Source: a candidate division FCPU426 bacterium (GTDB taxonomy: Bacteria; Oederibacteriota; Muellerivitia; Muellerivitales; DAHXKG01). Taken from it: a stretch of 64,000 nucleotides of DNA. The stretch is taken from positions 1-64,000 of the forward strand of contig DAHXKG010000003.1 in NCBI GenBank assembly GCA_027366525.1, in the 5' to 3' direction. The notes below the pieces were generated by a model. It did no database searches. It was given only the letters and a program-made list of their open reading frames with translations, and was not told where the DNA came from. How positions within the stretch are numbered: position 1 is the first letter of the stretch; every line of letters starts with the position of its first letter. This document shows positions 2,043 through 36,281 of the stretch, in pieces. The translations under genes were made by a program, and so were the position numbers.

Positions 2043-3557
2043 TTATTTTTCAAAGACCTTGGATCGAATCTGATTCATCGATAGGTGTCGATCTATTTGA
2101 TATGCCATTTGCTCAAAAACACCCTCCATATCTTTTTGAGTATCGCGGATGCGTGGATTTCTTAAAAATCCTAATTCATGAATCAATGCGGAGCATATGC
2201 AGTGATTTTCAAAAAGTCCATGTAGGAGCGTTCCCACAATATTTCCCTGTGCATCGGTAGAACCTTCTTCACTTTGAATCCGTTCTTGATTTTGCATCGT
2301 TGTTTTAAAAAGTGATACTCCCGGTCGCTCCACTTGAACTTGCCCCATATGAATTTCATAGGCATTTATTTTTTCCCCAATTTGTCCCTGAGTTAAAAAA
2401 CTATTTTTTTGAATGCGTGCTGAAACTTGAACTGTTTTCTTGAATTTTTGAAACCGGGTTGAAACAGATAAAAAACCAAGTCCTTGAACACATGGTTGAT
2501 TGGATTCAATGTGATACGGATCCTCAATAACCCGTCCCATCATTTGATATCCACCGCAAATACCCAAAATCGGTCTGTGCTTTTTTATTCGATTCCTAAG
2601 CATTGCTTCAAATCCTTGTTTTCGAATCCAATGTAAATCAGACACAGTCGATTTAGTTCCTGGGAGAATGACTAAATCGGCTCCTGCACCCTCCCTAGGA
2701 TGCTGAATATACTTTACCTCCACTTCGCTCATTCTTTCTAATGGAAGAAATTCATCAAAATTAGATAGATGTGGATATCGAATAATCGCAATTCGTATTG
2801 AAGATCTTAATTTTGAATCTCTACTGGTGTAGTCTAGAGAAACTGCATCTTCTTCAGGTATTCTCAAATTTGGGAGATAGGGTAATACTCCTAAAACAGG
2901 TTTGAAAATTCTTTTTTCTAAGTTATGAATGCCGGGTTTTAAAATCCGTATATCCCCTCGAAATTTATTGATAATCAATCCCAAAATACGATTTTTCTGT
3001 TTACTCGTTAGCAATTCAATCGTTCCTACTAACGAAGCAAAAACGCCTCCCCGATCAATATCGCCTACAAGAATAACTTGAGCCTTTGCCCATTGAGCTG
3101 GTAATTCATTAGCTAAATCTATGTTTTGAAGATTTAACTCCGCAGGGCTTCCTGCTCCTTCTAAAATAATCAATTCATATTGACTTCTCAGACGATCAAG
3201 TGCTTGTGTAATTATAGATTTTAATTTTGGGATGTATTTTCGATATGTTGGAGCTGTCATTGATCCTACCGTTTGACCTGTAGTAATAATCTGCATCCGA
3301 TGTTTGGATTCGCACTTGATTAGAACCGGATTCATATCCACAGAGGGTACTATTCCACATGCTTGAGCTTGAACCGCCTGAGCTTTGGCCATTTCCAATC
3401 CATTTGAAGTCACAAATGAATTTAAGGACATATTCCAAGCTTTGAAAGGAGCCACCTTCACGCCTTGATTTTTGAAATATCGGCATAAAGCTGTTGCCAC
3501 AAAACTTTTTCCAACACCTGAAGCTGTACCCTGTATCATCAATACGCGAGCAGCCAC
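2043..3557 (-). CDS. cobQ: Adenosylcobyric acid synthase (glutamine-hydrolysing)
   Basis: CobQ amidates four side-chain carboxylates of adenosylcobyrinic acid a,c-diamide, using glutamine and ATP. The N-terminal half is the dethiobiotin-synthetase-like ATPase with P-loop GTASGVGKS near residue 11 and the family motif PFKAWNMS. The C-terminal half is a class I glutaminase with the nucleophile Cys in GICGGYQ and a conserved His in LLHGLFEN. Length 504 is normal for the family. The start is GTG at 3557, overlapping the cobO stop by one base (TAGTG), so the two are translationally coupled. It is the last gene of the riboswitch-controlled operon that begins with btuB. Confidence 0.95.
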   Translation of the reverse strand: MAARVLMIQGTASGVGKSFVATALCRYFKNQGVKVAPFKAWNMSLNSFVTSNGLEMAKAQAVQAQACGIVPSVDMNPVLIKCESKHRMQIITTGQTVGSMTAPTYRKYIPKLKSIITQALDRLRSQYELIILEGAGSPAELNLQNIDLANELPAQWAKAQVILVGDIDRGGVFASLVGTIELLTSKQKNRILGLIINKFRGDIRILKPGIHNLEKRIFKPVLGVLPYLPNLRIPEEDAVSLDYTSRDSKLRSSIRIAIIRYPHLSNFDEFLPLERMSEVEVKYIQHPREGAGADLVILPGTKSTVSDLHWIRKQGFEAMLRNRIKKHRPILGICGGYQMMGRVIEDPYHIESNQPCVQGLGFLSVSTRFQKFKKTVQVSARIQKNSFLTQGQIGEKINAYEIHMGQVQVERPGVSLFKTTMQNQERIQSEEGSTDAQGNIVGTLLHGLFENHCICSALIHELGFLRNPRIRDTQKDMEGVFEQMAYQIDRHLSMNQIRSKVFEK

Positions 3558-4191: not shown

Positions 4192-4854
4192 TTAACATTT
4201 CTGAATTTCATACAATAATTCTCGCAAAGGCATTTTGGGTAATGAATCCAATTGAAGATCAGCTTGGTCCAACGATAGTTGTCTCGTAATATCATTGGGA
4301 ATGGCTATACAGTAAATCGATGCTGCTTTAGCTGCCGCAATACCATTAGGAGAATCTTCAAATGCAATGGCTTGATGTGCTTCGATCCCCAGCGTTTCCA
4401 AAGTTAACCAATATAATTCTGGATGGGGCTTCACTTGATTAACATCTTCAAAGCACCGAATGGAGTCAAAATAGTCGGCCAATTGAAATCGAGAGAGATG
4501 TGATAAGACCCAGTCTTGATTCGAACTAGAAACAACCGCTAATCGGAGACCCAACTTTTTAGCTTCATGAAAATAATTCAAAATTCCTGGGCGTATTTCT
4601 TCTTTTTGCAATTGTCGCTGATACTTTTTTTGATAAGTTTCATAAATCTGATTCAACAAATCTGGTGAGAATAACTTTGCTTTGAGGTAAGACAAGGGAT
4701 GAAACGAACTTCCTCGAGTGCCAATACATTGTGCCCATTGATTTAACGGCAATTCTAAGCCATATGATTGAAATATAGACTGCCAACTTTGATAAGCCGG
4801 AGTTTCTGTATCTAAGATCAATCCATCAAAATCAAATAAAAGCGCTTCAATCAT
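4192..4854 (-). CDS. HAD-superfamily phosphatase (beta-phosphoglucomutase-like)
   Basis: A 220-residue HAD hydrolase of the DhbB/PGM-like subclass. Motif I is FDFDGLILDTE at residues 7-17 with the nucleophile Asp and a DxD pair. Motif II is VVSSS near 109-113. Motif III Lys lies in VKPHPE, and motif IV is AFEDSPNGI. A helical cap sits between motifs I and II (about 18-85). The substrate cannot be read from sequence. It lies fourth in the cobalamin operon, 25 bp after the PAP2 gene and 47 bp before cobO. A phosphatase step in nucleotide-loop assembly is possible, but general phosphosugar housekeeping is just as compatible. Confidence 0.8.
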   Translation of the reverse strand: MIEALLFDFDGLILDTETPAYQSWQSIFQSYGLELPLNQWAQCIGTRGSSFHPLSYLKAKLFSPDLLNQIYETYQKKYQRQLQKEEIRPGILNYFHEAKKLGLRLAVVSSSNQDWVLSHLSRFQLADYFDSIRCFEDVNQVKPHPELYWLTLETLGIEAHQAIAFEDSPNGIAAAKAASIYCIAIPNDITRQLSLDQADLQLDSLPKMPLRELLYEIQKC

Positions 4855-4879
4855 AATTAATCATTCCTATTTCAAAAAA

Positions 4880-5656
4880 TTAAAAATTCATTTGAACTTG
4901 CACACCAGATCCATCTGCTTCTGCCATTGGCTGAATGGATAGAGAAAGCTTTTTTAATTCTTGCAAATGATGAATCGTGAATGCACGTCCTATAATATAT
5001 CCTAAGGTAGCTCCAAATACCGTATCGGATAACCAATGAACATTCACATCCATTCGAGACACCGCAGTCAGAACTCCTAGTGCTAAGGCGGGAACCCCCA
5101 ATTTCCATCCATACATTCCCATTAAACTTCCTGCAACTGTAAAAGCAGCCGATGTATGACCGGAGGGAAATGAAAATTTATCTGCGCCATTTGGTCTTTC
5201 TCGAAGCACGATTCGCTTAAGAATTTGAACAATTGTTCCATCGACAGCCAAGGCTTCCAATTGAGCCTCACCATATTGTAATTCATGAGGATCATTTTTC
5301 CATAATCCATAACCTACACAGGCGCTTCCAAAAATCACTCCAGGAATACCAGTTCCCCAGAAATTTCCAACGACTTGCCAATTTCCAATCCGATTATGGT
5401 TATAAAAATATTGCTGTACCTGATGATCATAAGAAAAGGCAACACCTGTCGCAATGCTTCCACCTATAAAAATAATTGCATCCTGCTCATTTGGAATATC
5501 CTGAATGCCCTCCCAAACACTTTGAAACGGACGATACGGCGGAAGCGATTGTGCCCAAAGAAATTTGCCTTGCAAAACTAATATTCCTAACGTGATACTA
5601 ATGATTTTTAAAAAATAAAATCCTTGCTTATTCGAATATTTTTCATTAATCGACAT
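4880..5656 (-). CDS. PAP2-family phosphatase with N-terminal signal segment
   Basis: A 258-residue PAP2 (type 2 phosphatidic acid phosphatase) protein. The three-part active site is complete: K147..RP155, PSGH at 164-167, and SR..H..D at 200-211. An N-terminal hydrophobic segment ends at FLWAQ, which looks like a signal peptide, and several hydrophobic stretches follow. A longer in-frame start exists at 5761, but ATG 5656 is preferred because it has AAGGAG just upstream and does not run into the ABC gene ending at 5688. It lies in the cobalamin operon between the transporter and the HAD gene. PAP2 enzymes dephosphorylate lipids, but the position suggests a corrinoid phosphate; this is inference. 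Confidence 0.85.
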   Translation of the reverse strand: MSINEKYSNKQGFYFLKIISITLGILVLQGKFLWAQSLPPYRPFQSVWEGIQDIPNEQDAIIFIGGSIATGVAFSYDHQVQQYFYNHNRIGNWQVVGNFWGTGIPGVIFGSACVGYGLWKNDPHELQYGEAQLEALAVDGTIVQILKRIVLRERPNGADKFSFPSGHTSAAFTVAGSLMGMYGWKLGVPALALGVLTAVSRMDVNVHWLSDTVFGATLGYIIGRAFTIHHLQELKKLSLSIQPMAEADGSGVQVQMNF

Positions 5657-5687: not shown

Positions 5688-7430
5688 TTATGCTCCCAAG
5701 GCCCATGGATTCCAAACCTTTGTAAAAAATTTTTCTGGATTTTGTTGATGCGCCGTACCAATAACTGTTATATGTGGAAATTGCTGCTGAATCAATTGGT
5801 AGAAATAAGCTTGAAGCTCCTCTTCGAGTGCCGAGGTGGCTTCATCCATAATTACCCATTCAGGCTGATAAAGAAACACTCTTCCCCAAGCAATACGCTG
5901 TTGTTCTCCAATCGAAAGAACCATTTCCCAATGCTGACACTCTTCCAATTTATATTTTAGGTAATCTAATTGACAAAGAGTAAGAACTTTTTTAACTGCT
6001 TCATGAGAAAAATCTGTTTCTGGTTTTGGATAAGTTAAAGTCGCCTTAAGCGTTCCAATCGGTAAATAGATCTTCTGTGGAATAAACATCATTCGGGCAC
6101 GAGAAGGTATAATCACTCGTCCTTGTGCATAGGGCCAAATTCCTTTCAACACACGGATCAAAGTACTTTTTCCACATCCTGAAGGACCTTTCATCATCAC
6201 TGACTCACCTGGATATAACGTCTGTGATGCCATCGATACTAATACTTTTTGAGAATTCGGAGCTAAAATAGATATTGCCTTAATCTGAATTGGCGATTGT
6301 TCTGAGTTGCGTTCTAACAAATGTTGAGCTTGTTGGTAGGCTTGTTTCGTCCGATTTACTTCACACTCAAACCCTTCCAATCGATCTACAACTGCGCTCC
6401 AGTAAGCCAGTTTTGCATAATTATCCAGTATCCAAGAAAGGGCTCCCTTAACTTGATAAAATGCTCCCCAAACTTGAATCAATCCCCCATAACCCATATG
6501 CTTGGTAAAATATCTTGGAGCTGCGACCACTAAAGGAAAAATATCTGAAAATTGATTGTAGCCGCTAGAAAAAAAATCCAAATACAACATTTTTTGAATA
6601 ATGGATTGAAAATTAGAAAAAACATGCTGAAAAGATTTTTTTAAGCTTGTTTCTTCCATCATTTCTCCATCGCTTAACGCAATATTTTCTCCATTTTCTC
6701 GAAGTCGAATGAGTGAAAATCTGAAATCAGCCTCTAAAAGCTGTTGATTATAATTAAGTCCCACCAAAGGACGACCTATTCGATGTGCTATCCAAGTTGA
6801 AATGCCTGCATAAATCAAGCAAGCCCATACCATATATCCCGGGATGGAAAGTATTCTTCCGTAACCAAGGGAAATATGCAAAGGGCCTGAAAGTGTCCAC
6901 AAAATCGCAATAAATGAAACAAACATGGCTACTTGATTGATTAATCCAACAAACAAAGATAGGCTTGAAGTCACAAATTCTCGAATATCATCAGAAATTC
7001 GTTGATCAGGATTATCGGTTTTCTGGGTTTCCAAATGCCAAAGATAATGGCTCTTATTTTGAAGCCACTGCTCCAGAAACCTTCGAGTCATCCACCGTCT
7101 CCATTGATTTTGAAGACTTTGAACAAGATACTTCTGAAAAGATGAAACGATCACAATCAGCAAAGTCAAAATCAAAAAATATCCCAAAAGTGTCCAAAAA
7201 ATACTTTCATTGAATTTTTGGATGGCATTATAAAAATGTCGTGTCCAAATGTTAACCAGAACCATCAAATAAACGTTGCCTAAGGTCAACAGTAGAACCA
7301 CGAATAATAATCCACGCCCGCTTCCTCCATCTTTAGAAATCCAATAGGATCGTCCTAATTTCCAAAAACTTTTCAAATGTGACTTGGTAAAAGGTACAGA
7401 AGAAAAAAACCTTGGATTACGGGAGTCCAT
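5688..7430 (-). CDS. SbmA/BacA-type ABC transporter (YddA/Rv1819c-like), candidate B12 importer
   Basis: A fused membrane and ATPase protein of 580 residues. The membrane half belongs to the ABC_membrane_2 / SbmA-BacA family, with hydrophobic helices at about 40-60, 78-98, 155-180 and 195-215. The ATPase half has Walker A GPSGCGKST at 415-423, signature LSIGEQQR at 505-512 and Walker B VIMDE at 526-530. Family members with a fused ATPase include mycobacterial Rv1819c, reported to import cobalamin. Here the gene follows btuB by 26 bp under a cobalamin riboswitch, and no BtuCDF is seen. Import of corrinoids across the inner membrane is therefore a strong inference, not a demonstrated function. 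Confidence 0.85.
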   Translation of the reverse strand: MDSRNPRFFSSVPFTKSHLKSFWKLGRSYWISKDGGSGRGLLFVVLLLTLGNVYLMVLVNIWTRHFYNAIQKFNESIFWTLLGYFLILTLLIVIVSSFQKYLVQSLQNQWRRWMTRRFLEQWLQNKSHYLWHLETQKTDNPDQRISDDIREFVTSSLSLFVGLINQVAMFVSFIAILWTLSGPLHISLGYGRILSIPGYMVWACLIYAGISTWIAHRIGRPLVGLNYNQQLLEADFRFSLIRLRENGENIALSDGEMMEETSLKKSFQHVFSNFQSIIQKMLYLDFFSSGYNQFSDIFPLVVAAPRYFTKHMGYGGLIQVWGAFYQVKGALSWILDNYAKLAYWSAVVDRLEGFECEVNRTKQAYQQAQHLLERNSEQSPIQIKAISILAPNSQKVLVSMASQTLYPGESVMMKGPSGCGKSTLIRVLKGIWPYAQGRVIIPSRARMMFIPQKIYLPIGTLKATLTYPKPETDFSHEAVKKVLTLCQLDYLKYKLEECQHWEMVLSIGEQQRIAWGRVFLYQPEWVIMDEATSALEEELQAYFYQLIQQQFPHITVIGTAHQQNPEKFFTKVWNPWALGA

Positions 7431-7456
7431 TGATTGTTCTCCTTTATATTCGATAA

Positions 7457-9475
7457 TTAAAAATTAATTTTCGTTCCGATATAAGTTGAAAAGCGAGCTG
7501 TTCCATAGCCATAAATTTCTTCGTATTGTTCATTGAATAAATTATCAATACGTCCATAGAGTTGCAGAGTGGGACTGATCTGGTATGATGCAGTGAGATT
7601 GACTACAACATAGGAAGGCATCGTCACTAATGTAACCGGGTAAACCGAGTAATTGTCATCCTCTCGTGTTCCAACATAAAAAATATTGATCCCGCAATGT
7701 ATTTGGTTCCATTGATAAAAAATATCTGCGTTCCATTGGTTTTTAGGACACTCCAGCAATGCAAGTCCCGTTTGAACATTGAGCGCCAGTGTATAGGTGT
7801 AATTTACGGCAATATTCAAGTGTTGAATTTCTTGATCAGAAATGCCGATTTCAAATCCTTGAGTTTGAGCCAGCCCAATATTTACATATTGCCCATATGG
7901 TGGAGTTGCAGTCGTGTTAAAATCAATCAAGTTGGAGAAGTCGGTGTGAAAAAAGTTAAAATTACCTCGAATTTTTCCTTGTTGAAAAAATTGATCCATT
8001 CCAGCCTCCCAACTCTGATCTTGTTCTGGCTGCAAATGTACATTCCCATAGGGTGAATATAATTGATATAACGATGGTATTCTAAAGCCAGTTCCATACG
8101 TGATCCGCAACTTACTTTCCCATCCTGGAATCCAATACGCTAACCCTTCTTGATGGGTAACATGATCACCAAAGGAAGTCCAATGATCATTTCGAACATT
8201 TAAAGAAACATGGATTTGGTGAAATAATGTTGTTTCATCTGCCGCAAACTCACTTTGTGTATCAATCGACTGATTAAACAATGTTTGATTCAATCCATAT
8301 CCATAATTCGCCCAGTCATTAATACTGCCCCATGCACGCTGATCTCTCAATCCAATCATGACCGTTTCGCCCGAACACAAATCGAAATTATTTTGCCAAC
8401 TTGCTTGAACTGCACGACCATCGAAAACACCTTGTTCATAATGAGAATTAGGGTAAGAACTAAATTGATCGGTATAGTTTTGTAAATCACTCGTATTGGA
8501 AATATTTAAAATCTGTTCCCAGGTTTGATGCAATAATTTCCATTTTACCTGATCACCGGCAATCCATTGTTGTTCATTTAAAAAGTAATTCGGATCGTCT
8601 CCACCAATACCCGCTTGAGCATCCAAATGAGTTCGAGACTGAATATCGTCGATCAAAATCGTATTTGTTAAATTCGATGTTGGAGCAATTTCAGCATGAA
8701 TGGATGACGTTGTATTACGATCACCATCATTGATTTGATTTCCAAAGGCTCGATCCGCTGAAGGAAATCCCTGGGTATTAAATTGAGAAATGAAAAGATT
8801 CACCTGAGCAAAATGATTGCCTGCTGAGGCCTCAGCTGATTCATGAAATGTTTGATACGCTCCCCCTTCCAAATTGACAAATCCAGATAGGGGGCCTGAA
8901 CCCGATTGAGTAATAATATTAATGACACCAGACCCTGCATTCGTTCCATACTCGGCACTTAAAGGGCCGCGGACAATATTAATGTGATCAATATTACCGG
9001 CAAATAGCTGATCCCAATTACTGAACGAATCATTCGTGGCAATCGGATCGTTAAGAGGTATCCCATCCATGAGTACTAACACTTGCCCTGAACTTGCCCC
9101 CTGCACATGGACTGAAGCAATCTCACCTGGAGCTCCATCCTGAGTCAGAAATAAGCCAGGAGTACCTTGTAATGCTTGCAAAACACTTTGAGCTTGTTTT
9201 CGTTGAATGTCTTGAGCCGTAATCATCGACAACGAATCTGCAATATCTTTCCAAGCAGTTTTTAATCGAGTGGCCGTAACCAACATCGTTAACGGCTTTG
9301 AAACTTGACGTTCTTGATGATTGGATTTTATTTTCGCTGTGATTGTGTTTTCACTAGCATTTATGGTCAACGTTTTTGAAATAGAAGGAGAAAGCTTCCA
9401 AGCCCAAAGTGGGGCACTCACTAGCAACCAAATCCACAAGATGAAAAAACATTTCCAACCATAAGAAATACGCAT
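7457..9475 (-). CDS. btuB: TonB-dependent cobalamin/corrinoid outer-membrane receptor
   Basis: A 672-residue outer-membrane receptor. The signal peptide spans about residues 1-26, ending in PLWAW. A TonB-box-like TMLVTATR lies at about 63-70. The plug domain follows (LMDGIPLNDP, NIVRGPLSAEYG, GVINIIT) and then a 22-strand-type barrel ending in Phe, as usual for these proteins. The frame is open further up to 9571, but ATG 9475 is chosen because it has GGGAG upstream, starts the signal peptide, and leaves the riboswitch intact. The gene is first in the operon and directly downstream of the cobalamin riboswitch, which makes corrinoid the expected ligand. Confidence 0.92.
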   Translation of the reverse strand: MRISYGWKCFFILWIWLLVSAPLWAWKLSPSISKTLTINASENTITAKIKSNHQERQVSKPLTMLVTATRLKTAWKDIADSLSMITAQDIQRKQAQSVLQALQGTPGLFLTQDGAPGEIASVHVQGASSGQVLVLMDGIPLNDPIATNDSFSNWDQLFAGNIDHINIVRGPLSAEYGTNAGSGVINIITQSGSGPLSGFVNLEGGAYQTFHESAEASAGNHFAQVNLFISQFNTQGFPSADRAFGNQINDGDRNTTSSIHAEIAPTSNLTNTILIDDIQSRTHLDAQAGIGGDDPNYFLNEQQWIAGDQVKWKLLHQTWEQILNISNTSDLQNYTDQFSSYPNSHYEQGVFDGRAVQASWQNNFDLCSGETVMIGLRDQRAWGSINDWANYGYGLNQTLFNQSIDTQSEFAADETTLFHQIHVSLNVRNDHWTSFGDHVTHQEGLAYWIPGWESKLRITYGTGFRIPSLYQLYSPYGNVHLQPEQDQSWEAGMDQFFQQGKIRGNFNFFHTDFSNLIDFNTTATPPYGQYVNIGLAQTQGFEIGISDQEIQHLNIAVNYTYTLALNVQTGLALLECPKNQWNADIFYQWNQIHCGINIFYVGTREDDNYSVYPVTLVTMPSYVVVNLTASYQISPTLQLYGRIDNLFNEQYEEIYGYGTARFSTYIGTKINF

Positions 9476-9526: not shown

Positions 9527-9576
9527 TCTATCTGCATATCCACTTCCCATAGCCCGAAGAAGCTGTCTCAAAATAG

Positions 9577-9722
9577 CTTGAGGCCGGTCTCCTGACTTAG
9601 GGTTGATTCACGAATAAAAGCCTTCCCATTTAAAATAGTGACTTTTATTCCAGTTACTGCCCAACACCCTTCACAGTGGCGGGTCCGTACCGGAATTTCA
9701 CCGGTTTCCCGAACACCTCAAG
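9577..9722 (-). promoter_or_regulatory. Cobalamin riboswitch (aptamer)
   Basis: Read on the minus strand, the region has the conserved cobalamin-riboswitch blocks in order: GGGAAACCGGTGAAATTCCGG, then CCCGCCACTGT, then AGTCAGGAGACCGGCC. The closing P1 stem is CTTGAGG (9722-9716) with CCTCAAG (9583-9577). Immediately 3' of P1 a competing hairpin CTCAA-GCTATT-TTGAG can form. It sits between the predicted promoter and btuB and should repress the whole operon when adenosylcobalamin or another corrinoid is plentiful. Confidence 0.96.
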
Positions 9723-9733
9723 TTGTTGCATTA

Positions 9734-9762
9734 GTCATACATAAAAAATCAAGTCCTGTCAA
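9734..9762 (-). promoter_or_regulatory. Promoter of the cobalamin operon
   Basis: On the minus strand TTGACA (9762-9757) and TATGAC (9739-9734) are separated by 17 bp. The -35 is perfect; the -10 has two mismatches. The start site would fall about 5 nt before the riboswitch P1 stem, which is the spacing expected for a leader starting directly with the aptamer. Confidence 0.6.
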
Positions 9763-10801: not shown

Positions 10802-13800
10802 ATGTTAGCAAGATATTCTTTGAAAATTCTTATCTTTAGTTTAATCATTCACATTTTCTTGGGAATTTTTTCGCTGGTATTAGCCCAATGCACACCTGCA
10901 ACCGCCCAAATCTGTGTAGCAGTGGATGATTATGCAGAAGTTTATATTAATGGCGTTTTTTTAGGTCAAGTAAATTACTGTAATTGGAATGGTGCCGGAA
11001 CTTGTCCACCAGGTTGCTTGAGTGTCCCTGTCTCTTTATTAACCAATCCTATTTGTATTGCCATTGAAGATCAGAACACCGCACCAGAAGTTACTTACGC
11101 TTCATGGGATTTAGATATTACTTGTAGTAGTGGGTTGCATTCAGAAATTACATCCTCTGATGGAAATTATCAAGGTTATTACATTTCCACTGGAAATCCA
11201 GCACCTACCCCAGGCCCTGACTCGAGTGGGAATCCTTGGTACTCTCCCAATTATAATGGAAGTGGCGTCTTTACATTACCTCCTGTAACTGTAGTCAATG
11301 GAGATACTTGGGGACAACCCATTTTTAACCCAGTCACTGGACAACAAATCCCATTTATTGCTAACAACAATACTGGAGACTATGGAGATAGTGTTGGTGC
11401 TGTTTTCTGGAGGCAATGTGGTGTGACTATCCCAACCCCTCAACCTACGATAGGACCTGCAACTTTCACAATCACCAAAACATTGGATGGACCCGTAACT
11501 GCCAATGGATGTGGAACAAATGATTTTTGTGTAACATTTACGATTGTTGCTTGCAACACTGGAGGCGCCATTAATACTCCTGTAACCATTATGGATAATC
11601 TCATTACGCCTGCAGGATTTCAATTCGTAAATTGGGGCTATGATGGAACTTATCCTTACAATAGCCCTCCTAATGGAGAAGCACCCGTACCAAATTCAAA
11701 CATGATTTATTTTCCAACAGGACTCGGAAATGGATGTGTAACTTTGCAAGCTGTAGAAGAAAATTATTATTGGCCAAACAATCAGTGTCAACAAGAAGTA
11801 GATGAAGCCTCACTTAGTTATGGAGGAAGTGTTAGTATTTCTTCCGCTCCAATTACCGTAAATATCCCTTGTTTTACCCCCACTCCTACCTGGACTCCTA
11901 CTTTCACTCCCACTTGGACTCCTACCTGGACCCCTACTTGGACCCCCACTTTCACTCCTACCTGGACTCCTACGTGGACTCCCTCTCCAACACCAACTCA
12001 ATCAACTCCTACTTTTACTCCCACTCCAACTTTTACACCAACTAAAACGCCTACGCCTACAAATACTTTTACTCCAACAAAGACTTTAACGCCAACTAAT
12101 ACCTTTACACCCACTCAAACACCTACGCAGACTTCCACTCCGACACCCACTAATACGTTTACTTCTACTAGTACTTTTACTCCAACCCAAACCCCCACCT
12201 CAACTTTTACTCCCACTCCGACCCCTACGCATACTCCCACCTCGACACCCACTAGTACACCTACTCCAACCGCTACGAACACGCCTATCCCATCCGCAAC
12301 ATCAACTAATACCCCCACCAATACTCCTACACCGACGCATACTTTCACCCCTACCAACACTTCCACTCCCACTCCCACTAATAGCCCAACCGCTACTCCT
12401 ACTCAAACTCCAACCTCTACACCTACTTCAACACCCACTAACACATCTACCCCAACTGCTACTAATACACCTGTCCCATCCGCAACATCAACCAATACCC
12501 CCACTAATACTCCTACACCGACACATACTTTCACTCCTACCAACACCCCTACTCCCACTCCCACCAATAGTCCAACCGCTACGCCTACTCAAACTTTTAC
12601 ACCTACTCAAACTCCAACCTTTACGCCTACCTCAACACCCACTAACACATCTACCCCAACTGCTACTAATACGCCTGTCCCATCCGCAACGCCCACTAAT
12701 ACCCCTACCGATACTCCCACAGCAACTCATACCTTCACCCCTACCAACACCCCTACTCCTACTCCCACCAATAGTCCAACCGCTACTCCTACTCAAACTT
12801 TTACACCCACTCAAACTCCAACCTTTACGCCTACGCAAACTGTGACTAGTACACCAACCAACACAATTACAAATACACCCACCTTCACACCTACTTTTAC
12901 TCCAACTTCAACAACGACAAATACACCTACTTTTACTCCAACTTTCACATCAACTTATACACCTACCGTGACCAATACCCCAACCAATACCCCAACTGCC
13001 ACTTTCACCAGTACTCCCACTTCGACACCAACTCCCGTTGTTACCGTTGTCCTGAAAAAGAATGCTTCAAACGCTAATCCATCGTCTGGAGATCAAGAAA
13101 CGTATACCATTCAAGCAAACATATTTAATAACTCTGCCAAAAATATTGTTGTCTGGGATACTATTCCCACGGGCTTAACTTATGCCGGTGGTATAACACC
13201 CAACGGACAAGTCATTCCCCTACCAACGCCAGGTTCTTCTTCAACAGGTACATTACTTGTTTGGAATTTAGGCTCCGAATCTCCAGGATCTTATACCTTC
13301 AGTTATCGTGCAACCGTTAATCAATTGATTTTAGGGGGGACGGTAATTACCAACTGGGTTGCCTGGCAGGATTTAGAAGAACCTACTCCACTATTAGCTC
13401 AAGCTCCCATTACCATTACGGGTGCCTATACCATTAAAATTGGCATTTACAACGAATCCGGTGAAGAAGTTAAACAAATTTTAGAAACCCAACTTTCTCA
13501 ACCACTGGATACCATAAATTTAGAAGTCTCTTCTAATATTACGACGGTGAATGGAACCGTGACGATTTACTATCAAGGGGTGAATTTAGGAACATGGAAC
13601 GGAACTAATACGCAAGGACAGCTCGTGACAAATGGCCAATATTATGTGAAAGTTGACAATATTGATCCCGAAGGAGCTGTAACTTCCGTCACTAAAGCTA
13701 TCACGGTTGATCGCGCTCTTCAAACTATTACCGTTTTGGTTTATAACGAGTCTGGAGAAGTAGTTCGGCACTTATATGAAACTAATGAAAACTATAGCTC

Positions 13801-14344
13801 CACTAATAACATTACAGCGGAAACCGTTAGTTCAACGGTCCTCGTTCCTTCTACGGCGATGAACTCTCCTCTACTCACCATCCAGTGGATAAACAATTCA
13901 GGAGCTGTCATAGGAACAACCACTTGGGATGGCCGAAATGATGCTGGTGAAATCGTAACTAATGGAGAATATTTTATAGCGGTAGTCTCAAGTACGGGAA
14001 CGGGAGCCAATGTTTCACTCACCAAAGAAGTGACCATTAATGGTACTGGAGAAAACCTGGGTCAGGTCTACGCAGCTCCCAATATCCTTAACCATGGTAA
14101 CAGCTTACTAAACCTACGAGTCATTCCGCCTGCGGGAGCTGGAAATTGGACCATTAGTCGAGTCCGCGTTTATGATGTAAGCGGCGAATTAGTGGACGAA
14201 TTCGCCGGATCTCCAGGCTCTAATTCGGCCTCTTATAACCTTTCAACATTGGCGAGCGGACTTTATCTAGTCGTGGTGAATTTGGAAGATGCTCAGGGCC
14301 ATTTATTAGGTCATCAAATTATTCAAATTGTTATTCAACACTAA
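10802..14344 (+). CDS. Large secreted surface protein with Thr/Pro-rich linker and FlgD-like domains
   Basis: An 1180-residue exported protein. A signal peptide covers about residues 1-28 (ending VLAQC). Cys-rich beta domains follow to about 355, including a segment (about 220-355) that resembles DUF11-type repeats. Residues about 357-744 are an almost pure Thr/Pro linker. A DUF11-like domain follows (about 745-870). Two FlgD-like Ig domains come next, each with YNESGEEV-type openings and W.G.N..G..V.NG.Y closings, and the C-terminal tail ends in [14 protein letters not shown]. The tail resembles that of the protein at 1-866. A surface or secreted structural role is inferred; no enzyme motif is seen. 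The start ATG 10802 has a weak AGGA site. Confidence 0.85.
11873..13035 (+). repeat. Thr/Pro-rich coding repeat with higher-order units
   Basis: About 1.16 kb of degenerate ACN-CCN-ACN codons encoding a Thr/Pro linker. Within it a larger block, opening with PVPSAT or PIPSAT, recurs at about 12284, 12470 and 12674, giving units of 186 and 204 bp (62 and 68 residues). This points to block duplication on top of the short period. Slippage-prone and a likely site of length variation or assembly error. Confidence 0.9.
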
Positions 14345-14506
14345 AAAATTATGGTGATTCTTGATCGGATAGTTAATTTGATTCCATACAAATCGTTACT
14401 GGACTTCATCAATGACTTCCGGTGTCGCTTTGATTGAAAAATAAATATTTATTGTTTGAGCATCTGAAATTTTAAATTTTTTTAAACTTATTTTTCGAGG
14501 ACTTTG

Positions 14507-15439
14507 ATGAAAGAGCATACACATCCACTCCTCAACCACCCCATTGATGTCAGCAGGGAATTTTCAAATTTAGAAAATACCCTATTTCTACCAAAGCAAT
14601 TGTTGAATTTTAATCTCAAAACTATGATGGGTCAAATTGACTGGAACAGATACGCATATAAAATTCGCACAGCTTTCAATCAAGAAGGATTATCTCTGGT
14701 TGAACAATCGTCATGGGAGTTCCCTCCAATTTATGATCCTTATTCTGAATTGAACTCCTTTAAAATTACCTTTTATGGCAATCGAACCGTGAGAATACAA
14801 CTACATGGTCGATCTTATCCTCATGCTTCAACCTCTTCGCTTATGTTAGTGAATCATTTAAAGCCCTCCCCTCCCTGGCCAGTGAAGCACACTAAAAACC
14901 GTATTATCTATCAAAGCTCAGCCGGATCGCTCATTATTCATCAAAAGCCTTGGAGACTTGAAATCCGGGATGCCTCCCATCAAGTACTTACTCAAACAAT
15001 CAATCTCGAGGATCACCGAAGTCTGCGCAATACGGATCCCCTTCCTTTTTGTTTTATTCGACCCACACCTAATTATGCCCGAAAATTCGCCGCTACCTTT
15101 CAGCTTCATAATTGTGAAAAAATTTATGGCTGCGGGGAATCATTTACACGTTTAGACAAACGAGGACAAAAGTTGGTTTTGTTTACCTATGATTGTCATG
15201 GGGTTCAACATGATGGGATGTATAAACCCATTCCATTTTTCATGAGTAATCGAGGCTATGGCATGTTTCTTCATACCACCAGTCCCTCTACTTTTGATTT
15301 TGGCTATTCCTATGGCGAAGCAACCACTTTATTTACTGAGGATGAGATTTTGGATCTCTTTATATTTTTAGGCTCTCCCAAGGAAATTTTATCCGCCTAT
15401 ACTCATTGTACAGGCCGAAGTCCCATGCCACCATTCTGA
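14507..15439 (+). pseudogene. GH31 alpha-glycosidase, 5' fragment (YicI-like)
   Basis: About 310 residues of a GH31 family glycosidase: the N-terminal beta-sandwich and the start of the barrel, with YGCGESFTRLDKRGQ and DCHGVQHDGMYKPIPFF motifs resembling alpha-xylosidase YicI. Homology stops at TGRSPMPP (about 15433), exactly where GH31 proteins normally continue into the barrel, and a stop follows two codons later. ATG 14507 is preferred over the TTG one codon earlier because CGAGGA lies upstream. The 3' remainder of the same gene is at 18901-19662. The middle with both catalytic Asp residues is missing, so the gene cannot make an active enzyme. Confidence 0.88.
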
Positions 15440-15584
15440 AAACTCAATTTTAAACCACATTTCTAAACTATTTGTTCCATCTGTAAAATCCGAATAATCT
15501 AAAAGTATCTCATATCCATCTGGAGGTATTGGTATAAATCCAAGATCAATTTGCTTTGGGCTTTTTTTATTTTTCCAATAACTA
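15434..15584 (-). pseudogene. Unidentified AT-rich ORF fragment
   Basis: A minus-strand frame of about 50 codons with coding-like composition (motifs IDLGFIPIPPDGYE and LDYSDFTDGTNSLEMW). It lacks a plausible start and runs directly into the antisense of the GH31 fragment. Its base composition is close to the host and unlike the GC-rich part of the insert. I do not recognise the family. Confidence 0.35.
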
Positions 15585-15647
15585 TTAAGCGCGGATGCGT
15601 TTGATGCCCGTTCCAGCCTTTTCAATGAAGCCAACACGATGCAACAG
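15585..15647 (-). pseudogene. Remnant of an AlbA_2/HATPase_c_4 (RecG-like) protein
   Basis: On the minus strand the frame reads DLLHRVGFIEKAGTGIKRIR and ends at a TAA (15587-15585). This resembles the conserved C-terminal helix motif (LxRxGxIExxGTGIxRI) of putative ATP-dependent DNA-binding proteins with AlbA_2/HATPase_c_4 domains. Only about 20 residues remain, cut off at the first 15-bp repeat. The family match is from memory of the motif. Confidence 0.5.
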
Positions 15648-15662
15648 GTCCCCGTCGTGGAC
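15648..15662. repeat. 15-bp boundary repeat, copy 1
   Basis: GTCCCCGTCGTGGAC, with GTCC/GGAC arms. It lies immediately left of the SnoaL-like gene and truncates the AlbA_2 remnant. Identical to copy 2. Confidence 0.75.
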
Positions 15663-15676
15663 GACCGGGAACGGGA

Positions 15677-16048
15677 TTACTTCTGTTCGTTCAAATAGAA
15701 AGCTTTTACTTTTTGGGCTTTGTTTTCCGCGTTCAACTCCACCACATCAAGAACCTGATTACCGTTATCCCGCCGGTAAAGGACCGCGTAACCGCTGGGC
15801 GCGGAAAAAACCTGCTCCAGGGTGAAGTGGATATGAGGCGCCAAGGAAAGTCCCAAGCGGAAATGCTCGCGCAACTCCGTTAATCCATGAAGTTTTCCAT
15901 CGGGTTTATGCCAACGCACCACCACCGTGTTGGCCTCAAATTCAATCGTGTCGGCATAGTGACCCATGATTCGATCCAGGTCATGGGCGTTCCAGGCCTC
16001 GATCCAATCCCCAGCGATCGTCCGTAAGTCGGCAATATTTTTGAGCAT
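15677..16048 (-). CDS. SnoaL/NTF2-like domain protein
   Basis: A 123-residue single-domain protein of the SnoaL-like (NTF2 fold) type. The N-terminal helix reads WIEAWNAHDLDRIMGHYAD, the usual opening of the family, and the rest alternates beta strands (EFEANTVVVRWHKPDG, AVLYRRDN, VLDVVELNAENK). Such proteins are diverse small-molecule isomerases/hydrolases or ligand binders, so no reaction can be assigned. It is GC-rich, unlike the host genes, and is bracketed by copies 1 and 2 of the 15-bp repeat, suggesting it arrived as a unit. Confidence 0.7.
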   Translation of the reverse strand: MLKNIADLRTIAGDWIEAWNAHDLDRIMGHYADTIEFEANTVVVRWHKPDGKLHGLTELREHFRLGLSLAPHIHFTLEQVFSAPSGYAVLYRRDNGNQVLDVVELNAENKAQKVKAFYLNEQK

Positions 16049-16093
16049 GATGAAATTACCTATTCTTATTTCACTTTTTCTTGTCGACTCCGG

Positions 16094-16108
16094 GTCCCCG
16101 TCGTGGAC
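16094..16108. repeat. 15-bp boundary repeat, copy 2
   Basis: GTCCCCGTCGTGGAC, identical to copy 1, lying in the 72-bp gap between the SnoaL-like gene and the methyltransferase gene. Confidence 0.75.
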
Positions 16109-16120
16109 AAGTAAGCAATG

Positions 16121-16978
16121 TCAAACCGTCGCCACTAGGAACTCTTCGCCACTGAATGGCCTAAAGCCATCCTTCCGATTCGAAAAATACCGCTGGGCCA
16201 ATTCATCCGACGAGACGTGGCGAGCTTTTTGAAACCCAGCCTCGCGGGCAAGGGCCGTCATCTCCTCCGGCCTGAAGAAACTAACAAAAGGGGTCCCGGC
16301 GGCTTTGGCGCCTGCGACCGCTCGCTCCATCCCCACGCGGATCTCAGAGGCAACCATCTCGATTGGAAAGATGAAGGTCATAGCAAGCGTAGAACCAGGA
16401 GCCGACTGGGCGATGCGATGCAGAGTATCAAAAACGGCGTCCTTCGTAAGGTACATGGAAACTCCCGTGGAGGCTACTACCACTGGGTGGGAGGAATCAA
16501 ACCCTGCCCCTTGAAGAGCCAGCTTCCAATCCTCCCCAGCCTCAAAGTCCACTGGAACAAACTTGAGCGAATCCGGGACACCAAAACCCAGTTCCGCTAG
16601 GCGCCGAACTTTCCAGGCTTGTGTACTGGGCTGATCCACTTCGAAGACCTGAAGCTTCTTGGACATTTCCGGCCTACGTTGGACGAAGCTATCCAAGCCA
16701 GCGCCGAGGATCACATACTGACCAACGCCCCTTCCCACCTGATCCACCACTAAGTCCTCCACAAACCGAGCTCGGGCCACGATGGAGGCCTGGAAATATT
16801 TCGTCCATTCGGGATGCATGTCGGGCCGGTCACGCCAGCCCGCTTCGGGTGCCACCAGTTTCAGACCAATTTCATCCTCGAAAATCGGAGGCTTGTCGTC
16901 CACCTGAAGGTGCATTGCCCGCCAAAGAGCGGTTCTAACGGCCGTTTGATCAGGAATAAGCGGTTGTATGTTTTTCAT
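16121..16978 (-). CDS. Class I SAM-dependent methyltransferase, leucine carboxyl methyltransferase-like
   Basis: About 285 residues of the TIGR00027/PPM-LCM methyltransferase family. The visible signature is YVILGAGLDSF (SAM-binding glycine loop), then FEVDQPSTQAWK (acidic ribose-binding residue) and FVPVDFE, followed by GVSMYLT, which is typical for the family. The substrate is unknown. ATG 16978 is preferred over the upstream GTG (16993) because it has GGGAGATAGGGG in front. It is GC-rich and lies between repeat copies 2 and 3, on the same strand as the other genes of the insert. Confidence 0.82.
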   Translation of the reverse strand: MKNIQPLIPDQTAVRTALWRAMHLQVDDKPPIFEDEIGLKLVAPEAGWRDRPDMHPEWTKYFQASIVARARFVEDLVVDQVGRGVGQYVILGAGLDSFVQRRPEMSKKLQVFEVDQPSTQAWKVRRLAELGFGVPDSLKFVPVDFEAGEDWKLALQGAGFDSSHPVVVASTGVSMYLTKDAVFDTLHRIAQSAPGSTLAMTFIFPIEMVASEIRVGMERAVAGAKAAGTPFVSFFRPEEMTALAREAGFQKARHVSSDELAQRYFSNRKDGFRPFSGEEFLVATV

Positions 16979-17007
16979 GCCCCTATCTCCCACCTACTTT
17001 TTTTAGT

Positions 17008-17022
17008 GTCCCCATCGTGGAC
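17008..17022. repeat. 15-bp boundary repeat, copy 3
   Basis: GTCCCCATCGTGGAC, one mismatch to copies 1 and 2, extended here to a TGTCC/GGACA inverted repeat. It lies between the methyltransferase start and the HEPN gene end. Confidence 0.75.
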
Positions 17023-17049
17023 AAGTTTTCGACTACAAGTTGTACGTCT

Positions 17050-17463
17050 TTACTTCAAAATATCCTTCGGAAAACTTGTGCGAATCGCCGTTCTTACCTT
17101 AACGGCTAAGGCCGTCGTTTCTTCGGCTTCCTGCCGATTCATGGGTTCCCAATTCCCCGGATAGCGGCCCATCCAGGCATAACTCGTTAATTTTTCCTGC
17201 TCAGCAAGGGTCAATGGAAAACTAAAACCCAAAGGAAAAAGTTTGACGATTTCCGCGATGTCATGGCTTTTCGGGAAGTCGATCGAGAGGTAGACTAGGC
17301 GTGATTTTAAATATTTTTCGATGCATTGTTGGGCCAGGAAACAAACCACATCGCAGGGGCAATCATCGCCCATTTTTAGGAGGTTTTGAAAAGCCTTATG
17401 ATCGTTTTCAGCCTTCTCGATCCATTGGCGGACAATCGCAAATTGTTCAGGCGGCACGCTCAT
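17050..17463 (-). CDS. HEPN-domain protein (putative toxin of HEPN/MNT pair)
   Basis: A 137-residue all-helical HEPN protein. The motifs W.EKAENDHKAF, CFLAQQCIEKYLKSRL and KSHDI.E..KL are the usual family landmarks. The catalytic Rx4-6H motif of HEPN ribonucleases is not evident, so nuclease activity is uncertain. It overlaps the upstream MNT gene by 17 bp, the standard arrangement of HEPN/MNT toxin-antitoxin modules, in which the nucleotidyltransferase neutralises the HEPN partner. GC-rich, part of the insert. Confidence 0.82.
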   Translation of the reverse strand: MSVPPEQFAIVRQWIEKAENDHKAFQNLLKMGDDCPCDVVCFLAQQCIEKYLKSRLVYLSIDFPKSHDIAEIVKLFPLGFSFPLTLAEQEKLTSYAWMGRYPGNWEPMNRQEAEETTALAVKVRTAIRTSFPKDILK

Positions 17464-17776
17464 AGAGAACTTTCCCCTCGTGAACAGCCGTCTTGATAAT
17501 GGTCCCCACGATATCCCTGAACTTTCGGACCTCCTCGGGGGTCACCACAAAAACATCCTTTGCCAAACCTATCCCACTCAGGGCAAGGCGCACCTCCACA
17601 CATTTATCGACATGGCGACCTGCGAAGGGCATAACAACTAAAAGGTCCACGTCGCTATCCTGGCCGGCCGTCCCCCGGGCATAGGAACCGAAAAGGATGA
17701 TCTGAACCGGGTTAAATTTTTCGACGATCCGCCGGACCATTTCTTGGATGATGTCTTGAGCGCTCACGCTTTGCAT
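17447..17776 (-). CDS. MNT nucleotidyltransferase (putative antitoxin)
   Basis: A 109-residue minimal nucleotidyltransferase. The catalytic motif GSYARGTAGQDSDVD fits GSx10DxD exactly, followed by LLVVMPF. In characterised HEPN/MNT modules this protein AMPylates or otherwise blocks the HEPN partner. The ATG at 17776 has AAGGGA upstream and directly follows the TAA of a small upstream frame (17777-17896), so coupling is likely. It overlaps the HEPN gene by 17 bp. Confidence 0.85.
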   Translation of the reverse strand: MQSVSAQDIIQEMVRRIVEKFNPVQIILFGSYARGTAGQDSDVDLLVVMPFAGRHVDKCVEVRLALSGIGLAKDVFVVTPEEVRKFRDIVGTIIKTAVHEGKVLYERAA

Positions 17777-17896
17777 TTAATTCCCTTTATGACTCGAATA
17801 GGCAATAACGGCTTCAACGATATCCTTGAACGACATTATACCGGAATTTCCCAGATGGCATTGTCTGGCAACGTTGACGGGTAACTTGGTGTTCAT
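17777..17896 (-). CDS. Possible 39-residue small protein before the MNT gene
   Basis: The frame starts at ATG 17896 behind a G-rich potential ribosome site and ends with a TAA that abuts the MNT start codon (TAAATG). Its last codons supply the MNT ribosome site. The C-terminal part (GNSGIMSFKDIVEAVIAYSS) looks protein-like. No family recognised. It may be a real leader or third module component, or the tail of a truncated gene. Confidence 0.3.
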   Translation of the reverse strand: MNTKLPVNVARQCHLGNSGIMSFKDIVEAVIAYSSHKGN

Positions 17897-18013
17897 TATA
17901 TCGCCCCCCCCCCGCTTTTTCCATCCGATTTTGGGGTCAGGACCCAACCTAGGCGCCAAGCTTAGTCTCCTCAAGCCTTTGGAGACCCCCAAAGCAACTC
18001 CGAAATGGTTTTT

Positions 18014-18026
18014 TCCTCTCGTGGAC
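18014..18026. repeat. Degenerate fourth copy of the boundary repeat
   Basis: On the minus strand TGTCCACGAGAGGA matches the first nine bases of the repeat seen at 15648, 16094 and 17008 and then diverges. It lies between the HEPN/MNT unit and the IS1380 remnant, where a cassette boundary would be expected. Confidence 0.4.
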
Positions 18027-18080
18027 AGACACCTATCCCTTTGAGATTTTCAGACAGCCGACTTTTTGACCCTTCCTAAA

Positions 18081-18900
18081 CTACCCGAGCCCCGGCGCCC
18101 GTGGCCTCATGGATCCCAAGTCCCGAATCCGGTCCAGAATTTCGGAGAACAGTTGCCTGGAAACAGCCACTTCCGCCATCCGGAAGACCACGTACCTAGA
18201 ATGCCGCACCACGTGGGCCCCGATCTTGATAAGTTTTTCCCGCAAGCTCGTCATTGACCAGTGCTTCACGGGTTCCGGCAGTACCAGACGGCGCAGAAAG
18301 TTGCCCAGGTTGTAGGCCAGGGTAAAAAGCTGGAGCCGCACTTGGTTGTCCACGAAATCATGGCAACTTAGCCGCGTCCACTTGACTGCGTTTTTCCCCT
18401 CTTTGATCCACTGCTCGGCTGTGCCTCGCCCGTTGTAGAACTTCACCACCTGCCGCGCCCAATACCGGAGGTTTGTCACGATGAACCCAACGCGTGGAAA
18501 AAGTTCCCCGTTGTGGTGTTCGATCTTCGCCACCACCCGGCGGGGTTTTCCCCAACTGGCAGCCTGGTACTGGAAGCTGTGATACCGAACCAAGGGTCTG
18601 TGGGAAGGGCACCCTACGGGACGGGCCAAAAAAGGCTCGACTTCCCGCTCCAACACGTCATTGGAAGCCAAGCGAATGACGTAAGAGTAGCCTTCCTTCT
18701 CAAGGAACTCATACAGCTCCGGCCGGGCAAACGCCGCGTCGCCCCGGAAGAATCGCTGGATGGGCAGGTCTCGGTAGCGTTCCACGATGGGTTCCAACAT
18801 CGAACGCCACTGGTCGGCGCTAGCGACGTTTCCATTCCGCAAAAAGGCTCTTTCCAGGTCGCCGAACTGGTTGAAGCAGAACAAAGGGTGATAGCAAGCA
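18081..18900 (-). mobile_element. Truncated IS1380-family transposase
   Basis: About 273 codons of an IS1380-type DDE transposase, complete at the C-terminus (TAG at 18081) but missing the N-terminal third. Visible landmarks are CYHPLFCFNQFGD at the broken end, FFRGDAAFA with the second catalytic Asp, HNGELFPRVGFIVTNL and NGRGTAEQWIKEGKNAVKW with the catalytic Glu, then the family LAYNLGNFLRR. The first catalytic Asp would lie in the missing part, so it is inactive. Homology ends at about 18899, where the GH31 3' fragment begins. No terminal inverted repeat is recognisable. GC-rich. Confidence 0.88.
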
Positions 18901-35723: not shown

Positions 35724-36281
35724 TCATTTTAATTGTTTTACAATGCCCGCTGTTAAATAAAATACTCGTTCAGCTTGAGCGGCTATCCTTTGATTTGCAA
35801 TACCTTGCAATCGAACAAATTGGCGAGCTAGGGCATTAGAACCAATGACACCCAATCCAACTTCATTAGAAACGATATAAACACTGGCTTTAATTGTTTG
35901 AAGAATTCCTGTCAAATGTTCAAGTTCACTGACAATCTCTTGCTCATTCATTTTTTTACCGCCAATACCCGACAAAAGATTTGAAAGCCATAATGTAAGG
36001 CAATCCAGGACAAGAAGATCTGTTTTTTTCCACGACGCATTCTGAAATACCTGAGAAATCATATAAGGTTCCTCCATAGTAATCCATTGGGCTGCGCGTT
36101 GTTGCTGATGCATCTGAATCGCTTGTTTCATTTCCAAATCTAAAGCACAAGCGGTAGCTAAAAAATATCGTTTGGAAAAATTTTCCATTTCTCCTTTTTG
36201 AAGCGCATATTTGGATTTCCCGGATTTAACGCCTCCTAAAATCAGCGTTACTGTTTGAAGGGAATTTATATGATTTTTCAC
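35724..36281 (-). CDS. cobU: Adenosylcobinamide kinase / adenosylcobinamide-phosphate guanylyltransferase
   Basis: CobU phosphorylates adenosylcobinamide and attaches GMP, activating it for nucleotide-loop assembly. The P-loop GGVKSGKSKYA, then DLLVLDCLTLWLSNLL and VSNEVGLGVIGSN..AR, are the standard family motifs, and 185 residues is the usual size. It is far from the other cobalamin genes (2.0-9.5 kb) and is not preceded by a riboswitch that I can see. No cobS, cobT or cobC is in the window. Confidence 0.94.
   Translation of the reverse strand: MKNHINSLQTVTLILGGVKSGKSKYALQKGEMENFSKRYFLATACALDLEMKQAIQMHQQQRAAQWITMEEPYMISQVFQNASWKKTDLLVLDCLTLWLSNLLSGIGGKKMNEQEIVSELEHLTGILQTIKASVYIVSNEVGLGVIGSNALARQFVRLQGIANQRIAAQAERVFYLTAGIVKQLK

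What the first reader, a model, noticed from the sequence alone, without database searches (positions are those of the whole stretch)
5688..9475. SbmA/BacA-type ABC transporter under a cobalamin riboswitch with btuB and no BtuCDF
The inner-membrane partner next to btuB is not BtuCD but a fused SbmA-type exporter-fold protein, like mycobacterial Rv1819c, which is reported to import cobalamin. Pairing it with an outer-membrane BtuB in a diderm under riboswitch control suggests a complete alternative B12 uptake route.
Basis: partly seen in the sequence, partly recalled or inferred. Interest (0 to 1): 0.6.

Follow-up and report, generated by a model that had tools for sequence, protein, structure and literature searches.

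The report
Alternative vitamin B12 inner-membrane importer operon
In an uncultured bacterium that cannot make vitamin B12 but appears to need it, the usual inner-membrane B12 importer (BtuCDF) is missing, and a duplicated, fast-evolving ABC transporter related to the mycobacterial B12 transporter Rv1819c sits in its place in the B12-controlled operon, probably as a substitute importer.

Summary
On the minus strand a cobalamin riboswitch (9735-9565) is followed by btuB, a fused ABC transporter, PAP2, HAD, cobO and cobQ, with gaps of 47 bp or less. The riboswitch is the only one in the genome. The transporter is better called YddA/Rv1819c-type (ABC_membrane_2 plus nucleotide-binding domain) than SbmA proper; its best solved relative by sequence and by fold is Rv1819c. 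The genome (97.5% complete) has no BtuC-family permease, no BtuF and no ECF transmembrane subunit; 24 of 25 good genomes of the phylum (candidate division FCPU426) have a BtuC-family match. In a same-order relative, riboswitch-btuD-btuC precedes cobO/cobQ, and btuF lies between cbiA and a cytoplasmic binding protein. Here both places are intact and the genes are gone. The genome has MetH, no MetE and no corrin-ring methyltransferases, so it should need imported corrinoid; it has TonB and ExbB/D. The transporter is a duplicate of another gene in the same genome, on a sixfold longer branch. No other ABC_membrane_2 locus examined lies near btuB or a cobalamin riboswitch. Best reading: an SBP-free, Rv1819c-type corrinoid importer displaced BtuCDF behind BtuB. 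Transport itself is untested.

The parts
9565..9735 (-). Cobalamin riboswitch aptamer (RF00174)
   Evidence: 95.2 bits against gathering 31.5, E 1.9e-22, model 1-189 complete; only copy in the genome
9466..9543 (-). Expression platform: hairpin that pairs the Shine-Dalgarno (9488-9481) and part of the btuB start codon (AUG at 9475-9473, U and G paired); -25.9 kcal/mol alone
   Evidence: the whole leader folds with z = -2.1. Indicates translational control; switching not tested
7457..9475 (-). btuB: TonB-dependent outer-membrane corrinoid receptor; by inspection a signal-peptide-like N-terminus and a TonB-box-like 'LTMLVTA'
   Evidence: TIGR01779 best hit 1.9e-82, E. coli BtuB best PDB hit; relative G007 BtuB 442 bits
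5688..7430 (-). YddA/Rv1819c-type fused half ABC transporter (type IV fold), proposed inner-membrane corrinoid importer
   Evidence: PF06472 + PF00005; Rv1819c 6tqe best PDB sequence hit 2e-79 and best Foldseek hit 1.3e-27; key NBD positions K421, Q452, D529, E530, H561 invariant among relatives
4880..5656 (-). PAP2-superfamily phosphatase, likely start ATG 5656; role in the operon unknown
   Evidence: PF01569 52 bits; 31 bp gap
4192..4854 (-). HAD-family hydrolase; role unknown (possibly a phosphatase of nucleotide-loop assembly, speculative)
   Evidence: PF13419 128 bits
3557..4144 (-). cobO/btuR: ATP:corrinoid adenosyltransferase
   Evidence: PF02572 210 bits; TIGR00708 202 bits, over cut-off
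2043..3557 (-). cobQ/cbiP: cobyric acid synthase
   Evidence: TIGR00313 458 bits; NF001989 568 bits, over cut-off
35724..36281 (-). cobU/cobP: adenosylcobinamide kinase/guanylyltransferase, elsewhere in the window; assimilation gene
   Evidence: NF004469 151 bits, just under its cut-off of 161

Best explanation
This is a B12-repressible corrinoid uptake and assimilation operon in which the standard inner-membrane importer BtuCDF has been displaced by a YddA/Rv1819c-type ABC transporter. Proposed working: when adenosylcobalamin is scarce, the riboswitch leaves the btuB Shine-Dalgarno open and the operon is expressed. TonB-driven BtuB brings corrinoids into the periplasm. The 580-aa half-transporter dimerises and moves them into the cytoplasm by ATP-driven alternating access through a large hydrophilic cavity, without a dedicated periplasmic binding protein. 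CobO and CobQ, with CbiA and CobU elsewhere, adenosylate and complete them for MetH. The gene arose by duplication of a second transporter of the same genome and was recruited into the B12 operon. Shown: anatomy, operon spacing, riboswitch, lack of BtuCDF and ECF, emptied syntenic sites, lack of corrin-ring methyltransferases and MetE, duplication and acceleration. Inferred: corrinoid as substrate, import direction, dimerisation, riboswitch switching, co-transcription.
For: Riboswitch and operon with gaps of 26, 31, 25, 47 and -1 bp. No FecCD in own genome, while 24 of 25 good phylum genomes have a match. No BtuF, no CbiQ. Synteny: G004 has riboswitch-btuD-btuC-...-cobO-...-cobQ; G004 and G007 have SBP(+)|BtuF(-)-CbiA(-)-riboswitch-BtuB; own genome has SBP(+)|CbiA(-) without BtuF, and riboswitch-btuB-transporter-...-cobO-cobQ. 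Predicted need for B12: MetH and a B12-binding radical SAM-like protein present; only CobA/HemD and one further TP_methylase, so no corrin-ring methyltransferases; no MetE. TonB with ExbB/ExbD-like genes. Rv1819c is the nearest solved relative by sequence and fold, is the sole cobalamin importer of M. tuberculosis (PMC3603451), and its M. marinum homologue transports cobalamin in liposomes (PMC10960864). Duplicate of own paralogue (98/99), branch 0.63 against 0.11, 55 against 9 departures from otherwise invariant sites.
Against: No transport data. The operon also holds PAP2 and HAD genes with no clear B12 role, so co-transcription is not proof of function. Only one genome shows the arrangement: none of the ABC_membrane_2 loci found in 12 other genomes, nor the paralogue, lies near btuB or a cobalamin riboswitch. 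E. coli YddA, a family member, has been reported as a multidrug exporter (PMC9728188). The fast divergence, larger in the NBD (45% identical to the paralogue) than in the TMD (68%), could partly be relaxed constraint. The BtuM family was not tested. Completeness is 97.5%, not 100%.
Confidence: 0.77

Rival explanations
1. The transporter is a passenger: a duplicated YddA-type transporter (peptide, siderophore, Fe-S or drug) that landed in the B12 operon, while corrinoids enter by an unrecognised inner-membrane protein.
For: The PAP2 and HAD genes show the operon contains genes of no known B12 role. YddA-type genes on plasmids often sit by TonB-dependent receptors of other kinds: 5 of 9 loci looked at. 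BtuM-type solitary carriers were not tested.
Against: BtuC, BtuF and ECF were searched and are missing while BtuB, MetH, CobO and CobQ are kept. The transporter sits directly behind btuB and upstream of cobO/cobQ, where relatives have btuDC. Nearest characterised relative is a B12 transporter.
Confidence: 0.13
2. The transporter exports something (corrinoid surplus, drug, lipid or peptide), as reported for E. coli YddA, and is not an importer.
For: Type IV fold is shared with exporters such as MsbA, and with ABCD1-3; E. coli YddA reported as multidrug exporter (PMC9728188); mycobacterial BacA moves cobalamin both ways (PMC10960864).
Against: Riboswitch repression by B12 means expression when B12 is scarce, which fits uptake. 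A cell predicted to need imported B12 with no other recognised importer would be left without a route.
Confidence: 0.05
3. Absence of BtuCDF is an assembly artefact and the transporter only supplements it.
For: The genome is in 33 contigs and 97.5% complete; same-order relative G007 (84% complete) has BtuF but no detected BtuC, so a gap can mimic loss.
Against: Both ancestral positions lie inside intact contigs: cobO/cobQ are preceded by btuB-transporter, and CbiA abuts the SBP-like gene with about 280 bp between. BtuC and BtuF are missing independently at two loci, and no second riboswitch exists.
Confidence: 0.05

Closest known systems
Rv1819c / BacA of Mycobacterium (6tqe; PMC3603451, PMC10960864)
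   Same: Fused TMD-NBD ABC_membrane_2 half-transporter; best sequence and fold match; replaces BtuCD as the inner-membrane B12 route; no SBP
   Different: About 28% identical; Rv1819c acts without BtuB, whereas here the gene is a lineage-specific duplicate coupled to a TonB-dependent BtuB and a riboswitch
BtuB-BtuCDF (E. coli and most FCPU426 relatives)
   Same: Outer-membrane BtuB, TonB energisation, translational-type cobalamin riboswitch, cob genes nearby
   Different: No BtuC/BtuD pair and no BtuF; inner-membrane step by a type IV rather than a type II ABC transporter, no periplasmic binding protein
FusA-FusD / YddB-YddA-PqqL (PMC5095587, PMC3855560)
   Same: TonB-dependent receptor in one operon with a YddA-type fused ABC transporter
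   Different: Proposed cargo is ferredoxin iron-sulphur or another nutrient, with an M16 protease and no B12 riboswitch
BtuM and ECF-CbrT
   Same: Alternative inner-membrane B12 importers used where BtuCDF is lacking
   Different: Unrelated proteins; no CbiQ/EcfT here; BtuM not tested
ABCD4 (6jbj)
   Same: Same ABC_membrane_2 family, moves cobalamin across a membrane; in the sequence and Foldseek lists
   Different: Human lysosomal transporter, more distant than Rv1819c

Membership tests
YddA/Rv1819c-type (ABC_membrane_2) full-length ABC transporters | ABC_membrane_2 TMD fused to ABC_tran NBD in one chain | tested here: met
   PF06472 184 bits and PF00005 53.5 bits, both over cut-off; best hit Rv1819c over residues 20-567
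YddA/Rv1819c-type (ABC_membrane_2) full-length ABC transporters | Intact catalytic NBD motifs | tested here: met
   Walker A GPSGCGKST, Q452, MDE Walker B with E530 and H561 kept; signature reads LSIGE (LSVGE in G007, LSPGE in Rv1819c) and the D-loop SALE
Rv1819c-like cobalamin transporters | Transports cobalamin | not testable with these tools
   Needs biochemistry or complementation
SbmA/BacA (SLiPT) proton-driven transporters | TMD only, no NBD | tested here: not met
   NBD present; SbmA_BacA and SbmA models score below ABC_membrane_2, and the SbmA equivalog (98 bits) is below its cut-off of 492
BtuCDF | FecCD-family BtuC permease | tested here: not met
   No PF01032 match in own genome; control positive in 13 of 14
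BtuCDF | Periplasmic BtuF | tested here: not met
   Only one Peripla_BP_2 gene, no evident signal peptide, orthologous to the cytoplasmic-type protein next to BtuF in relatives
ECF-type B12 transporters (CbrT) | EcfT/CbiQ transmembrane subunit | tested here: not met
   No PF02361 match
BtuM | BtuM-family membrane protein | not tested
   No model for this family was searched
BtuB | TIGR01779 equivalog cut-off | tested here: inconclusive
   Best family hit but 278 bits against 600; the riboswitch-linked BtuB of relative G007 also scores only 331
Cobalamin riboswitch RF00174 | Score over gathering threshold, full aptamer | tested here: met
   95.2 against 31.5, positions 1-189

The most novel reading that the evidence does not exclude
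A duplicated YddA-type ABC transporter has specialised into a dedicated corrinoid importer that completes a binding-protein-free BtuB route in a diderm, a displacement of BtuCDF that can be followed gene by gene in one bacterial order.
Probability: 0.55. Interest if true: 0.65.

Novelty: new variant of a known kind. Interest (0 to 1): 0.56.

Why it matters
The natural role of the YddA/BacA-like ABC family is largely unknown, and mycobacterial BacA has been viewed as promiscuous. Here gene order, riboswitch control and the loss of BtuCDF together point to a physiological substrate for one member and give a before-and-after pair (the B12 copy and its unspecialised paralogue in the same genome), so residues for corrinoid specificity and direction can be tested. 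It also warns that genome surveys which call B12 uptake by btuCDF alone will miss such consumers.

Tried and rejected
Co-occurrence of the transporter with missing BtuC across the phylum looked suggestive (G000, G007, G012, G018 have the transporter and no FecCD), but G007 keeps BtuF, these three relatives are 76-89% complete, and their transporter copies are not near B12 genes, so I do not use it as evidence. The lone Peripla_BP_2 gene was considered as BtuF and rejected: no evident signal peptide, and its orthologue sits beside a separate BtuF in relatives. The genome-contig scan gave only the unspecialised orthologues. The plasmid search found many YddA-type genes; of nine neighbourhoods opened none contained an annotated B12 gene. 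My first alignment used a wrong frame for G012 and was redone. Literature searches found no description of btuB with this transporter under a riboswitch in the papers held; most subscription papers are not held.

Full report
What is there. On the minus strand of the window a full-length cobalamin riboswitch (9735-9565; 95.2 bits, gathering 31.5) is followed by btuB (9475-7457), a 580-residue fused ABC transporter (7430-5688), a PAP2 phosphatase (5656-4880), a HAD hydrolase (4854-4192), cobO (4144-3557) and cobQ (3557-2043). The intergenic gaps are 26, 31, 25, 47 and -1 bp. Between aptamer and btuB start, an eight-pair stem covers the Shine-Dalgarno (9488-9481) and extends over part of the start codon, -25.9 kcal/mol for the hairpin alone; this looks like translational control. 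It is the only cobalamin riboswitch in the 2.02 Mb, 97.5% complete genome. GenBank titles of relatives place the lineage in candidate division FCPU426.

What the transporter is. Pfam gives ABC_membrane_2 (184 bits), SbmA_BacA (120 bits) and ABC_tran. SbmA/BacA proper have no NBD (PMC13316013), so the accurate name is YddA/Rv1819c-type. Rv1819c of M. tuberculosis (6tqe) is the best sequence hit (2e-79, residues 20-567) and the best fold hit of an AlphaFold model (pLDDT 75.7, pTM 0.58; Foldseek E 1.3e-27, TM 0.65). ABCD4, the human lysosomal cobalamin transporter, is also in both lists. Walker A, Q-loop, Walker B with catalytic glutamate, and the switch histidine are kept; signature LSIGE and D-loop SALE deviate mildly.

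Does the genome have another B12 importer? No FecCD (BtuC) match, although the same search finds matches in 38 of 45 phylum genomes, and 24 of 25 good ones. No CbiQ/EcfT. The single Peripla_BP_2 gene (C1) has no evident signal peptide and is the orthologue of a protein that lies beside, and is distinct from, BtuF in relatives. BtuM was not tested.

Is the loss real? In the same-order relative G004, a riboswitch leads btuD-btuC and further down cobO and cobQ; in G004 and G007 the order is SBP-like(+) | btuF(-) - cbiA(-) - riboswitch - btuB. In the window genome the SBP-like gene and cbiA are still side by side with btuF gone and about 280 bp between them, and cobO/cobQ are preceded by btuB and the ABC transporter instead of btuDC. 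Two independent sites within intact contigs therefore lack the genes; an assembly gap would have to hit both.

Would the cell need B12? MetH and one B12-binding radical SAM-like protein are present; the B12-independent methionine synthase domain is absent; only two TP_methylase genes exist, a CobA/HemD fusion and one more (322-codon frame; taken as RsmI-like from its size, not tested further), so the corrin-ring methyltransferases are lacking. CbiA, CobQ, CobO and CobU are present, so late-stage corrinoids could be finished. TonB with ExbB/ExbD-like neighbours is present. The predicted state is auxotrophy with a need for uptake; uptake of methionine from outside could soften it.

Where the gene came from. 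The same genome holds a second copy on contig C29 (60% identical), not near recognised B12 genes. The tree joins the two with 98/99 support; the window copy has a branch of 0.63, the C29 copy 0.11. Relative to the FCPU426 orthologues the window copy departs at 55 otherwise invariant positions and the C29 copy at 9; between the copies the TMD is 68% and the NBD 45% identical. So the B12-operon copy is a duplicate that has changed quickly, as expected on recruitment to a new role, though relaxed constraint cannot be excluded.

How general is it? Of 384 genomes only 13 carry a strong ABC_membrane_2 gene, and only this genome has two. None of the other loci has btuB (BtuB-like protein search) or a cobalamin riboswitch within the several kilobases examined. 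In nine plasmid loci spread over Proteobacteria and Cyanobacteria, five have a TonB-dependent receptor close by, one of them also with TonB/ExbB/ExbD. With FusA/FusD and YddB/YddA (PMC5095587, PMC3855560), this makes receptor plus YddA-type transporter a recurrent pairing, probably for nutrient uptake, of which the window would be the B12 version.

Verdict. The substrate and direction are inference; the strongest rival is a passenger gene plus an unrecognised importer.

Noticed in passing
window 14504-19662: A glycoside hydrolase 31 gene seems split: N-terminal part 14504-15439 and C-terminal part 18901-19662, with a GC-richer stretch (about 46-57% against 39%) between them that holds a SnoaL-like gene, a leucine-carboxyl-methyltransferase-like gene and part of a DDE transposase; an insertion or an assembly join.
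   Followed up: partly
L110-L116 (plasmid loci): YddA-type ABC transporters on plasmids sit next to or near TonB-dependent receptors in five of nine loci opened, three of these with a sigma factor and FecR and one with TonB-ExbB-ExbD, suggesting a general role as inner-membrane partner of such receptors.
   Followed up: partly
G000:C1, L094 7948-8901: A signal-less BtuF-like (Peripla_BP_2) protein conserved next to btuF/cbiA in same-order relatives, kept here after btuF was lost; function unknown.
   Followed up: partly
window 10802-14344: A 1180-residue secreted-type protein with a long threonine-proline repeat and FlgD-like and sorting-domain C-terminal parts.
   Followed up: no
window 4192-5656: PAP2 and HAD phosphatase genes inside the B12 operon had no match in the B12 loci of relatives; possible stand-ins for a missing nucleotide-loop phosphatase, speculative.
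   Followed up: no
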